Source of the DNA: Pelecanus crispus
Taxonomy: Eukaryota; Chordata; Aves; Pelecaniformes; Pelecanidae
Assembly: GCF_030463565.1 (NCBI RefSeq)
Contig: NC_134644.1
Coordinates: 132,057,388 to 132,121,387, forward strand
Direction of reading: 5' to 3'
DNA length: 64,000 bases
Part shown: piece by piece, positions 4,052 through 29,057 of the stretch
Layout: each line of letters starts with the position of its first letter
Numbering within the stretch: position 1 is the stretch's first letter
The notes under the pieces: generated by a model
Seen by the model: only the letters and a program-made list of their open reading frames with translations
The model's database searches: none
Told to the model about the DNA's origin: nothing
Position numbers and translations under genes: made by a program

Positions 4052-4327
4052 TTATTCTTTTGCTTTATGAGCCAACAGTACTTGTTTTCTTGAAGAGGAT
4101 GAAGCATCTTCATACTTCCCCCAGCCTTTACCAAGAGGGGTACTAGTAGTGGCTGCTACTGTGGATTTCAGGTTAGCCAACAAACCTCGCCTGGGTTTTT
4201 GTTGTTTTGGCTCCTCTATAGAGAAATGCTTTTTCCGTTCATCAAGTTCTTTTTGCAGGGAAGACACTGTTTCTTCAAGCTCCAGAACACGTTTAGCCCA
4301 GTTCTGAAGACTATTCATTTCTTGATC
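4052..4327 (-). CDS. Kinesin exon 18, C-terminal tail and stop
   Basis: The 91 residues include a last coiled coil (LQNWAKRVLELEETVSSLQ) and a basic, Ser/Thr-rich tail (KQQKPRRGLLANLKSTVAA), ending at TAA (4054-4052). The tail resembles the basic C-terminus of KIF20A (GKKPFLRNLLPRTP) in character rather than in sequence. Confidence 0.9.
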   Translation of the reverse strand, partial: DQEMNSLQNWAKRVLELEETVSSLQKELDERKKHFSIEEPKQQKPRRGLLANLKSTVAATTSTPLGKGWGKYEDASSSSRKQVLLAHKAKE

Positions 4328-28300: not shown

Positions 28301-29057
28301 CAAAGGTCTCCCCATCCAGGTGAAGTGGTAATAGCAGGGAGATTTTTAGAGGGATCCCAGCATTCCTTCCTTCCTCACAGAGCTTCAAAGTCCCTACTTG
28401 GACAACTTGTTCATTCAGCAGATGGATTTACCAGATGCCTCTACAGCCCTCCCATGACGAGCACTCCCCTAATCATACAAAATTAAGTCACCTGAGGGAA
28501 GTCCATCAGGAAACCTATCATTCTAAAAAAAGCAGAGATGGCTATACTAGCTTCAAAAGTGTACTGCAGAACAGCATTATAGATTTTTATTTCCAAGCAC
28601 CTAACAAGCTTTCAACAAGGATCTATGTCCTTTCTTAGCTTACTAAAAAGAGCGGTACAGTCATATTACATTCAAAGTGCAATTACTGAAGTCCTTTGCT
28701 TCCTTCTCAAAAGCTTAGCACAACACATCATGTAACATCAACCACCTGCATTTCCTACTGGCTATGATCTGTTTGTAAGCAATGAGAAGTAAGCACAAGA
28801 ATCAAAACATCTTGGGGGCAGGGGAATACAGCAGTTCTTACCAAAGAAATATTTACCAGAATTAAAGCTTAAAAAAAAAAAAAAAAAGGCATAATCAGAA
28901 GACAGACTACAAAACCAATCCACACCTCATGATCCTCTGTATTAGGTAATACTGTTGACTCCATAGGTGAGGGTTTACCTGCCACATTCAGAAAAGAAAC
29001 TGATTCCAACATATCAGATATTTCTGCAGAAACATAGGTTTTCCCCTCATCATCCAT
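4052..29057 (-). CDS. KIF20/MKlp2-family mitotic kinesin (KIF20A-like), complete, 18 coding exons
   Basis: Coding exons, high to low: 29057-28926, 27810-27736, 25051-24932, 24002-23864, 23765-23581, 20106-20010, 19534-19337, 19255-19144, 17262-17191, 15167-15021, 14397-14232, 12891-12721, 12056-11917, 10692-10527, 8983-8866, 8783-8716, 7040-6921, 4327-4052. Joined, they keep one frame for about 833 residues (human KIF20A has 890). Visible parts are motor start LRVRP (~54-58), P-loop GVTNAGKT (~144-151), a KIF20-type insertion in the motor (~185-265), ISFCEIYNE, switch I NEQSSRSH (~347-354), switch II DLAGSE (~382-387), IPFRESKLTR, then acidic neck, coiled coil and a basic tail. KIF20 proteins are plus-end kinesins of anaphase spindle and cytokinesis. 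Several stretches (NSERGIG, HRFTFSQ, ASTYDETLHV) are closer to KIF20A than to KIF20B as I remember them. Human KIF20A is not next to LYN, so this is probably a paralogue; I assign no symbol. Intact phases argue against a pseudogene. Confidence 0.93.
4462..4966 (-). mobile_element. CR1 LINE, 5'-truncated copy (intron 17)
   Basis: The 3' end lies at 4462 with the CR1 octamer repeat (ATTCTATG on the minus strand). The body covers the end of ORF2, with degraded LFSLEKRRLQGDLI and VKHWDRLPGEVVEAPS. It is cut off at about 4966, a typical CR1 5' truncation. It lies in the last kinesin intron in the same sense as the gene. Its last ~39 bases match the tail of the SINE at 18.3 kb without a mismatch. 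Confidence 0.93.
5965..6830 (-). mobile_element. CR1 LINE, longer 5'-truncated copy (intron 17)
   Basis: It is a second CR1 tail in the same orientation 1 kb away, extending further upstream into ORF2. Decayed frames show LEYCVQLWGPQHKKDMDLLE, ERVQKRATKMI and LFSLEKRRL. Frameshifts and stops make it inactive. The 3' end at about 5965 has only one octamer unit. Confidence 0.92.
6921..7040 (-). CDS. Kinesin exon 17, coiled coil
   Basis: The 40 residues begin LIKSLKFKIQKLNEALLEAN, a clear coiled coil with Leu/Ile heptads. The acceptor is TTTTCAG and the donor AAG|GTTTGT, phase 0 on both sides. Confidence 0.88.
8716..8783 (-). CDS. Kinesin exon 16
   Basis: A 68-base exon encodes DLMNKMMERANEGLQKQC and KEKEE. 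Phases are 1 in and 0 out, matching exons 15 and 17. Confidence 0.85.
8866..8983 (-). CDS. Kinesin exon 15, coiled coil
   Basis: It reads DRESKILQLERQLHEQ, then a break (GSPNSDILPAENN) and LEL. The acceptor follows a T-run; the donor CTAG|GTAGGA ends in phase 1. Confidence 0.88.
10527..10692 (-). CDS. Kinesin exon 14, coiled coil
   Basis: It encodes NRLEDMKDSYEEKLESKFEM and continues to EEFLAEQEKVE, charged heptad-rich stalk sequence. The acceptor is TCCTCAG and the donor GAG|GTATGA, and it ends in phase 0. Confidence 0.88.
11808..11875. repeat. TA/CATA-rich microsatellite (intron 13)
   Basis: Alternating TATA, CATA and TGTG units occur without a strict period, between kinesin exons 13 and 14. 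Confidence 0.7.
11917..12056 (-). CDS. Kinesin exon 13, coiled coil, GC donor
   Basis: It encodes the start of the stalk coiled coil (LLKTAENLKEKLVAERQ, LLLEVKIRREMAEAM). The only donor that keeps the downstream frame is AG|GCAAGT at 11917/11916, a consensus GC-AG site. The GT four bases further on leads to a stop in the next exon. Confidence 0.85.
12721..12891 (-). CDS. Kinesin exon 12, neck/acidic linker
   Basis: The 57 residues run from VIQTILPKSFGYFPPK to an acidic stretch (ETSVEEEVDITI). The acceptor CAG at 12892-12894 and donor GAG|GTAGAT give phase 0 on both sides. An open frame continues past the donor but lacks family resemblance. Confidence 0.8.
14232..14397 (-). CDS. Kinesin exon 11, end of motor
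   Basis: It encodes IPFRESKLTRLFQPFF, GKGKACMIVNINQ, and STYDETLHVMKFSAIAKQ, which close the motor domain in KIF20A style. The donor is CAG|GTAAGA, phase 0. Confidence 0.96.
15021..15167 (-). CDS. Kinesin exon 10, switch II
   Basis: It contains switch II as LSFCDLAGSERC, then RLKEAGNINNSLHILGKCI. The usual kinesin reading is NINTSL or NINKSL; here the third residue is Asn. The donor is GAA|GTAAGT. Confidence 0.95.
15990..16087. repeat. Inverted repeat, 31-bp arms, ~36-bp loop (intron 9)
   Basis: The left arm is 15990-16020 and the right arm 16057-16087, reverse complements except at two positions. Both mismatches are transitions that become G.U pairs when transcribed from the minus strand, the sense of the host gene. 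The loop holds a direct repeat of ACATATTAATA. It could be a small MITE-type element or a transcribed hairpin; I cannot assign a family. Confidence 0.85.
17191..17262 (-). CDS. Kinesin exon 9
   Basis: A 72-base exon continues switch I as HSIFSIRLLKLTDEHQ and ends GVSE at a consensus donor GTAAGT. Phase 2 on both sides fits the flanking exons. Confidence 0.9.
17989..18078. repeat. A/C-rich low-complexity tract (intron 8)
   Basis: A-runs interrupted by CCC and CAAA units; read on the minus strand it is T/G-rich. It resembles the T/G-rich tract at 26.5 kb. Confidence 0.7.
18219..18362 (+). mobile_element. tRNA-Ile-headed SINE with CR1-type 3' tail (TguSINE1-like)
   Basis: The head (about 18221-18290) follows a tRNA-Ile(AAT) gene: A box TAGCTCAGTTGG at 18231-18242, an anticodon-arm region with AAT near 18258-18260, and B box GGTTCAGTCC at 18276-18285. 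After a short linker, the rest is a CR1 3' end finishing in ATTCTATG repeats. This architecture is that of the passerine SINEs (TguSINE1 and relatives), which CR1 enzymes mobilise through the shared tail. It sits in kinesin intron 8, antisense to the gene. The B box is mutated (CAG for CGA), so it is an old insertion, not a functional tRNA. Confidence 0.88.
19144..19255 (-). CDS. Kinesin exon 8, switch I
   Basis: It encodes DLKWINIQSTEEACKILK and ends within the switch I motif NEQSSRS(H). The donor AG|GTTTGT is chosen over the nearby GTAGG because only it rebuilds Ser-His across the junction. Confidence 0.92.
19337..19534 (-). CDS. Kinesin exon 7
   Basis: It encodes SVWISFCEIYNEYVYDLL, the conserved kinesin motif after the insertion, then RRVLRICEDQGGNSYIK, close to the KIF20A version. 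Phase chooses the acceptor: the TTAG ending at 19535 keeps the frame, while an AG three bases upstream does not. Confidence 0.93.
20010..20106 (-). CDS. Kinesin exon 6, motor insertion
   Basis: A 97-base exon encodes a Ser/Thr-rich, low-conservation segment (ETESISNTITNM...TLPSDSL) inside the motor insertion. It is supported by an acceptor at 20107-20108, the donor CTAG|GTAAAA and exact phase agreement with its neighbours (0 in, 1 out). Confidence 0.82.
23581..23765 (-). CDS. Kinesin exon 5
   Basis: It opens by completing the split glycine, then reads TSKDFGILPRSLDVIFNHI, the canonical GILPR motor motif, and runs into a polar stretch (SNDVKKLEDAQVKQEE) that starts the KIF20-specific insertion. 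The donor is GAG|GTCAGT, phase 0. Confidence 0.93.
23864..24002 (-). CDS. Kinesin exon 4, P-loop
   Basis: It begins VFGPETTQ and carries the nucleotide-binding P-loop YGVTNAGKTFTIQ. Human KIF20A has Ser where this protein has Ala (NSGKT versus NAGKT). The exon ends in phase 1 at CAAG|GTATAA. Confidence 0.95.
24932..25051 (-). CDS. Kinesin exon 3
   Basis: The 40 residues begin GCVTIEDPQTV and include NSERGIG and HRFTFSQ, matching the KIF20A motor segment ahead of the P-loop. It is phase 0 on both sides, with donor CAG|GTAGGC. Confidence 0.92.
26518..26602. repeat. T/G-rich low-complexity tract (intron 2)
   Basis: Runs of T broken by GGG and TTTGG units. Its composition is the reverse complement of that at 18.0 kb. 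Confidence 0.65.
27150..27540 (+). mobile_element. Possible ancient CR1/L3-like fragment (intron 2)
   Basis: One frame reads GQLNEFFASVFTTDG, which matches the conserved segment just ahead of the reverse transcriptase in CR1-type LINEs (LNAFFASVFNS in the copy at 41.2 kb). A G-rich and TG-rich insertion follows and the rest is too decayed to align by eye. Confidence 0.45.
27736..27810 (-). CDS. Kinesin exon 2, first motor strand
   Basis: A 75-base exon, too short to stand out as an open frame, encodes residues ~45-69 with KVFLRVRPFSVAELES, the first beta strand of a kinesin motor. The acceptor follows a T-rich tract and the donor is CAG|GTTAG. It is phase 0 on both sides. Confidence 0.9.

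What the first reader, a model, noticed from the sequence alone, without database searches (positions are those of the whole stretch)
4052..29057. Intact KIF20A-like kinesin gene between LYN and RPS20
Eighteen exons with matching phases give an 833-residue kinesin with complete motor, both switches and stalk. As far as I know, the human LYN-RPS20 interval has no kinesin, and human KIF20A lies in a different block (5q31) and KIF20B in another (10q23). This would be a third KIF20-family gene kept in this bird lineage, with a possibly germline or division-specific role. It may be annotated in bird genomes only under a generic name.
Basis: partly seen in the sequence, partly recalled or inferred. 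Interest (0 to 1): 0.78.

Follow-up and report, generated by a model that had tools for sequence, protein, structure and literature searches.

The report
Extra KIF20A-type cell-division motor gene
This bird gene encodes a complete motor protein of the kind that helps cells split in two; it is a separate, very old sister of the well-known KIF20A that also occurs in reptiles, frogs, fish and sharks, is already listed in databases under borrowed names, and has hardly been studied.

Summary
In detail: 18 exons on the minus strand, 29057 to 4052, all phases matching, give an intact 833-residue kinesin-6 with complete P-loop, switch I and switch II, between the LYN 3' end and RPS20. The same genome also holds an intact canonical KIF20A (884 aa, contig C8) and a KIF20B (contig C10). 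In a tree the window gene falls in a clade of its own (14 of 14 rows, support 100/99) with turtles, squamates, a frog, teleosts, a lungfish and a shark; mouse KIF20A groups with the C8 gene, and a bird-only duplication is rejected. So it is not a bird novelty but a fourth kinesin-6 subfamily of jawed vertebrates. It is already annotated: KIF20AL in chicken beside LYN and RPS20, with testis expression (PMC12193209), and 'KIF20A' in 82 of the 84 bird species in a capped hit list (counted by eye). A kinesin-6 paper counts three subfamilies (PMC9581516). No CCAAT-pair/TTTGAA module like that of KIF20A was found upstream of it, a weak hint of different, perhaps germline or egg, expression. Loss in mammals is recalled and was not tested.

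The parts
4052..29057 (-). KIF20AL-type kinesin-6 gene, coding span from ATG (29057) to TAA (4054-4052), 18 coding exons, 833 aa
   Evidence: spliced alignment to bird homologues, no stops, all phases match
28926..29057 (-). exon 1: start codon and N-terminal extension
27736..27810 (-). exon 2: first motor strand (LKVFLRVRPF)
24932..25051 (-). exon 3: motor
23864..24002 (-). exon 4: motor with P-loop GVTNAGKT (residues 144-151)
23581..23765 (-). exon 5: motor, start of loop-6 region
20010..20106 (-). exon 6: loop-6 insertion (kinesin-6 hallmark), low confidence in the orthologue's model
19337..19534 (-). exon 7: motor
19144..19255 (-). exon 8: motor, first part of switch I
17191..17262 (-). 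exon 9: motor, rest of switch I
15021..15167 (-). exon 10: switch II DLAGSE (residues 382-387)
14232..14397 (-). exon 11: end of motor domain
12721..12891 (-). exon 12: extended neck between motor and coiled coil
11917..12056 (-). exon 13: start of coiled coil; followed by a GC donor (GGAG|GCAAGT)
10527..10692 (-). exon 14: coiled coil
8866..8983 (-). exon 15: coiled coil and hinge
8716..8783 (-). exon 16: coiled coil
6921..7040 (-). exon 17: coiled coil
4052..4327 (-). exon 18: end of coiled coil, basic C-terminal tail (QKPRRGLLANLKS), stop TAA
29400..30399 (.). CpG island upstream of the ATG, likely promoter (inferred)
   Evidence: GC 0.54-0.79, CpG observed/expected 0.71-1.11 in 200-base windows
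269..496 (+). open frame holding the last coding exon of LYN (flanking gene, convergent)
   Evidence: C-terminal motif (recalled) and Pfam tyrosine-kinase match
32183..33710 (-). RPS20: three coding stretches, given by open frames 33606-33710, 32757-32924, 32183-32416 (flanking gene, same strand)
   Evidence: motifs (recalled) and Pfam Ribosomal_S10 match

Best explanation
This is an intact member of a fourth vertebrate kinesin-6 subfamily, best called KIF20AL. It is a very old paralogue of KIF20A that split off no later than the common ancestor of living jawed vertebrates. Shown: intact gene, exon structure shared with KIF20A, separate clade, conservation across birds. Inferred: like KIF20A/MKLP2 it is a slow, dimeric, plus-end-directed motor. 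It uses ATP through the intact P-loop and switches, dimerises through the long coiled coil, and works on antiparallel microtubule bundles at the division midzone, where its divergent tail brings cytokinesis cargo. Because no promoter module like that of KIF20A was found, and because the chicken gene is expressed in testis, the most likely division of labour is that KIF20A serves ordinary mitoses while KIF20AL serves germ-line and perhaps egg or early-embryo divisions. The confidence below is for the identity; for the germ-line role alone I would say about 0.4.
For: Gene model and Pfam. Own KIF20A on C8:10907079-10915778, 884 aa, 18 exons, no stops. All 17 introns have the same phase in both genes, 13 of 17 at the same alignment column, the rest within 1, 1, 5 and 11 columns. 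Tree: third clade 14 of 14 rows on one side of a branch, 100/99; KIF20A 11 rows with mouse KIF20A, 100/99; KIF20B 8 rows, 100/100. The same groups hold without four long-branch rows, and bird copies as one clade are rejected, p-AU 0.00118. In 26 bird species with both genes listed, plus the window species (351 pairs), mean identity is 0.889 (motor) and 0.868 (tail) for KIF20AL against 0.926 and 0.870 for KIF20A. Chicken KIF20AL is listed with LYN, RPS20, MOS and PLAG1 on chr 2 and among testis transcripts that differ between large- and small-testis birds (PMC12193209). The KIF20A promoter has ATTGG-28-ATTGG-26-TTTGAA; 1.94 kb upstream of the KIF20AL ATG has no TTTGAA on either strand.
Against: No expression or biochemical data were available here. 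The testis result is one chicken study with six individuals; it shows expression, not restriction, and the group label 'L-TES', in which KIF20AL is up, is not defined in the passages I saw. The transcription start is unknown and the promoter comparison covers one species. Of the ten CHR forms in PMC4705690, four do occur within the 1.94 kb upstream: TTTAAA (3 places), TTTGTA (1), TTTGAG (2), TTTGAT (1, at -1058, inside the CpG island); none is within 1 kb of the ATG. A CpG-island promoter often means broad expression. The tail differs enough from KIF20A that the same cargo cannot be assumed. The motor and N-terminus evolve faster than those of KIF20A. The age rests on one partial, long-branch shark row (48% of columns), which groups with lungfish instead of branching first.
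Confidence: 0.82

Rival explanations
1. It is the bird orthologue of KIF20A, moved by a rearrangement, and birds have no other.
For: Databases name it KIF20A in most listed birds and turtles.
Against: The same genome has a second intact gene on C8 that groups with mouse KIF20A; holding mouse KIF20A together with the eight amniote KIF20AL rows is rejected, p-AU 4e-33; 26 bird species list both genes.
Confidence: 0.02
2. It is a recent duplicate of KIF20A made in birds or reptiles.
For: Same exon phases as KIF20A.
Against: Bird copies as one clade are rejected, p-AU 0.00118; frog, teleost, lungfish and shark sequences sit in the same clade.
Confidence: 0.02
3. It is a redundant general mitotic kinesin: same job as KIF20A in all dividing cells, kept as a back-up or for dosage.
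For: Intact motor and conserved tail; CpG-island promoter; variant CHR forms do occur upstream.
Against: No CCAAT-pair/TTTGAA module where KIF20A has one; tail diverged from KIF20A.
Confidence: 0.3
4. It has left cell division and works as a transport or cilium/sperm motor.
For: Chicken testis expression; mitotic kinesins can have post-mitotic roles (PMC7827351, seen only as title and abstract start in the listings).
Against: Motor, loop-6 insertion and extended neck keep the kinesin-6 plan; presence from shark to bird argues for a core role.
Confidence: 0.15

Closest known systems
KIF20A / MKLP2 (kinesin-6; own copy on C8; mouse structure 8bjs)
   Same: Motor fold of the orthologue's model (best PDB matches), 18 exons with identical phases, loop-6 insertion, extended neck, coiled-coil stalk, 38% identity over 848 aligned columns including gaps.
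   Different: Separate clade; shorter (833 against 884 aa); stalk and tail diverged; no CCAAT-pair/TTTGAA module found; different contig.
KIF20B / MPP1 (own copy on C10)
   Same: Kinesin-6 motor; shares some motor exon lengths (139, 112, 72, 147).
   Different: Separate clade, 100/100; the window protein is much shorter than human KIF20B (length recalled).
Chicken KIF20AL; teleost Zgc:56231; bird and turtle 'kinesin-like protein KIF20A'
   Same: Same clade for the sequences put in the tree: chicken P0177, teleosts P0035 and P0037, turtles P0229 and P0234. The chicken symbol KIF20AL is listed in the same neighbourhood.
   Different: Nothing essential; naming only. That P0177 and KIF20AL are one gene is inferred from clade and neighbourhood.
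Xenopus egg 'Kif20AE' (recalled from egg-extract work; two papers tried are not held)
   Same: Recalled as an egg/embryo paralogue of KIF20A; a frog sequence (P0027) lies in the KIF20AL clade.
   Different: Orthology with KIF20AL was not tested; no sequence was available.

Membership tests
kinesin-6 | Kinesin motor with intact P-loop, switch I and switch II | tested here: met
   Pfam PF00225 E 9.5e-93; motifs (recalled as such) at 144-151, 347-354, 382-387
kinesin-6 | N-terminal extension before the motor (PMC9581516, passages) | tested here: met
   48 residues before the first motor strand; 62 in own KIF20A
kinesin-6 | Insertion in loop 6 (PMC9581516, passages) | tested here: met
   93 residues between the flanking motor elements, 111 in own KIF20A; low confidence at 217-265 in the orthologue's model; Pfam motor spans 429 residues against 326 for an own kinesin on C14 whose motor is uninterrupted
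kinesin-6 | Extended region between neck linker and first coiled coil (PMC9581516, passages) | tested here: met
   57 residues, 55 in own KIF20A; low confidence 479-532, helix from 537 in the orthologue's model
kinesin-6 | Groups with kinesin-6 members in a tree | tested here: met
   no other kinesin family was put in the tree on purpose, but among PDB chains the best hits by sequence are KIF20A
KIF20A/MKLP2 orthologue group | Falls in one clade with mouse KIF20A | tested here: not met
   KIF20A clade (11 rows) and KIF20AL clade (14 rows) separate, both 100/99
KIF20A/MKLP2 orthologue group | Moves the chromosomal passenger complex to the central spindle | not testable with these tools
   needs experiment
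KIF20B | Falls in one clade with KIF20B | tested here: not met
KIF20AL clade | Groups with chicken, turtle, squamate, frog, teleost, lungfish and shark sequences to the exclusion of KIF20A and KIF20B | tested here: met
   14 of 14 rows on one side of a branch, 100/99; also without long-branch rows, 100/98
KIF20AL clade | Located between LYN and RPS20 | tested here: met
   window only; the chicken gene list of a 2-Mb region holds the same names, order not shown; other species not tested
KIF20AL clade | Absent from mammals | not tested
   recalled; no mammal genome could be searched

The most novel reading that the evidence does not exclude
KIF20AL is a dedicated germline/egg version of MKLP2, carried since the jawed-vertebrate ancestor by animals that cleave very large yolky eggs (sharks, lungfish, teleosts, amphibians, reptiles, birds). 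It may be the same gene as the Xenopus egg 'Kif20AE' (recalled). It was lost in therian mammals when eggs became small. Monotremes, which keep yolky eggs, would then be expected to retain it.
Probability: 0.25. Interest if true: 0.65.

Novelty: new member of a known kind. Interest (0 to 1): 0.42.

Why it matters
Kinesin-6 motors are central to cytokinesis, and a 2022 kinesin-6 paper counts three subfamilies (PMC9581516, passages). A fourth one, found from shark to bird, means that MKLP2 work in fish, frogs, reptiles and birds may be mixing two genes; in the bird lists seen here both mostly carry the name KIF20A. It also gives a test of whether egg or germ-line cytokinesis uses its own motor.

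Tried and rejected
Rejected: sole, moved KIF20A (second intact gene on C8); bird-only duplicate (p-AU 0.00118); retrocopy (17 introns); pseudogene (no stops, conserved in birds).

Led nowhere: searches for zgc:56231 (0 papers each), for KIF20A/birds/paralog/kinesin-6 (0) and for LYN/RPS20/kinesin/chicken (0). 'Kif20AE' gave one cancer paper, not opened. The listings show no paper on a vertebrate KIF20A paralogue by title or abstract start; I opened only a few. One search (KIF20C, KIF20A-like, KIF20AL, KIF20A paralog) gave 4 papers, of which I opened one, the chicken testis study. BRD8-like exons upstream of KIF20A on C8 were recognised from recall only; PDB and Pfam searches of pieces found nothing. 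No mammal genome was searchable. The best-120 lists held no mammal; that held one, a gray-whale protein (P0119) whose best match here is KIF20B. Capped lists say nothing about absence.

Limits of counts: species were counted and matched by eye. The 120 hits are 84 bird species (112 hits) and 8 turtle hits; 82 of the 84 species have an entry named KIF20A. I used 26 species with both genes. The tree used 37 of 360 listed proteins, chosen by hand, plus three own proteins and a row of three joined pieces of mouse KIF20A. Of the teleost sequences whose best BLAST match was the window gene, P0063 fell in KIF20B in the tree, and P0053, P0055, P0066 and P0071 were not put in.
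Full report
Observation. A spliced alignment of the minus strand to four bird homologues reproduces this: two templates give identical 18 exons and 833 residues, two give 832, none contains a stop, and the next codon is TAA. Sixteen introns are GT-AG and one, after exon 13, is GC-AG with a strong consensus. The motor motifs are complete. The neighbours are LYN (3' end, + strand) and RPS20 (minus strand), with a single-exon MOS-like kinase further on.

What it is. A six-frame search of the same genome with the motor gave two further close loci, C8:10.908-10.912 Mb and C10:20.217-20.228 Mb. 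The C8 gene is an intact 884-residue KIF20A with 18 exons; the C10 gene is KIF20B-like. The window gene and the C8 gene share the phase of all 17 introns, and 13 of 17 fall on the same alignment column, so the pair arose by duplication of an intron-bearing gene. Exons of the CDC23 family (ANAPC8) and of the GDNF-receptor family, GFRA3 by inference, lie on contig C8 about 10.6 Mb from KIF20A. Exons that look like BRD8 lie just upstream of KIF20A on the opposite strand; that identification is recalled, and no tool confirmed it.

Tree. With 41 sequences, chosen by hand, three vertebrate groups appear: KIF20A with mouse and the C8 gene (11 rows, 100/99), KIF20B (8 rows, 100/100), and the window clade (14 rows, 100/99) with birds, turtles, lizard, snake, frog, teleosts, lungfish and shark. 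The mouse row is 8BJS, which the structure paper calls murine (PMC10508983, passages). The shark row fills only 48% of the columns, has a long branch and groups with lungfish, so the branching inside the clade does not follow the species tree. Another shark and the same lungfish each have a sequence in the KIF20A clade. Removing four long-branch invertebrates leaves the three groups as they were, and a tree with all bird copies together is rejected (p-AU 0.00118). The sister relation of the window clade to KIF20A is less certain (91/85). The split is therefore at least as old as living jawed vertebrates. Whether it came from the early vertebrate genome doublings is inference.

Conservation. 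In 26 bird species for which I found both genes in the lists, plus the window species, mean pairwise identity (351 pairs) is 0.889 for KIF20AL against 0.926 for KIF20A in the motor, and 0.868 against 0.870 in the tail. In the N-terminus it is 0.751 (153 pairs) against 0.864 (351 pairs). So the tail is as constrained as that of KIF20A, while the motor and N-terminus are freer.

Domain plan. The three features that a kinesin-6 paper uses to define the family (PMC9581516, passages) are all present: 48 residues before the motor, a 93-residue loop-6 region, and 57 residues between motor and coiled coil. An AlphaFold2 model of the orthologue P0122 (52 sequences, mean pLDDT 68.4) shows a motor at 50-480, a low-confidence loop-6 insert, helices at 537-659 and 677-777, and a low-confidence tail. 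The best PDB matches of that model are KIF20A entries. The basic end of the tail (QKPRRGLLANLKS) loosely resembles the end of KIF20A (GKKPLLHNLLSRS).

Regulation. The KIF20A gene has two inverted CCAAT boxes 28 bases apart followed 26 bases later by TTTGAA, the canonical CHR element of G2/M genes. In 194,000 bases scanned, three places fit the loose module and only this one has TTTGAA. Human KIF20A and KIF20B are on a published list of CHR-regulated genes (PMC4705690, passages). Upstream of the KIF20AL start codon there is a CpG island with one CCAAT box at -671. All ten CHR forms of that paper were scanned on both strands over 1.94 kb: six are absent, TTTGAA among them; TTTAAA occurs three times, TTTGTA once, TTTGAG twice and TTTGAT once (-1058, inside the island), none within 1 kb of the ATG and none with a CCAAT pair. 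So the KIF20A-type module is missing, but a weaker CHR cannot be excluded. This is one species, and the transcription start is not known.

What is known. A chicken testis-weight study lists KIF20AL with LYN, RPS20, MOS and PLAG1 in a 2-Mb region of chromosome 2, and lists KIF20AL among 30 testis transcripts that differ between large- and small-testis birds, under 'up-regulated in L-TES'; the passages do not say whether L stands for large or light (PMC12193209; abstract, passages, Methods and Results). KIF20AL occurs twice in that text, both times in tables. Bird and turtle database entries mostly call the window gene's orthologue 'kinesin-like protein KIF20A' and give the true KIF20A the same name. 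The kinesin-6 paper counts three subfamilies. My literature searches showed no description of a fourth one in their listings; the library lacks most subscription papers. From memory, Xenopus egg work uses a 'Kif20AE'; two papers I tried are not held, so this is a lead only.

Mechanism. I think it most likely works like MKLP2, as a slow dimeric plus-end motor on midzone microtubules, used mainly in germ-line and possibly egg divisions. The motor class is shown; direction, dimerisation, cargo and tissue are inferred. Loss in mammals follows from the recalled human and mouse kinesin lists and was not tested here.

Noticed in passing
window 39889-42837 (+): A LINE-type element with a 983-residue open frame carrying endonuclease and reverse transcriptase domains lies beyond RPS20, relative to the kinesin.
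   Followed up: partly
window 4511-4888 and 6106-6702 (-): Two fragments resembling the 3' end of the same kind of LINE lie in intron 17 of the kinesin gene (recognised by eye).
   Followed up: no
window 11917/11916: Intron 13 uses a GC donor (GGAG|GCAAGT); conservation in other birds not checked.
   Followed up: partly
window 54952-56160 (-): Single-exon MOS-like kinase gene, in the expected neighbourhood.
   Followed up: partly
L019, 637 to 691 bases upstream of the KIF20A start codon on C8: A CCAAT-CCAAT-TTTGAA module, possibly shared with a head-to-head BRD8-like gene (BRD8 recalled).
   Followed up: partly
own genome C8:224527-262673: GDNF-receptor-family and CDC23-family exons lie together about 10.6 Mb from KIF20A, so the human KIF20A-CDC23 adjacency (recalled) is broken in this bird.
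   Followed up: partly
P0237 (one search list): A turtle (Platysternon) entry matching the window gene at 68% over its length is named 'fibulin-7-like', an apparent naming error.
   Followed up: no
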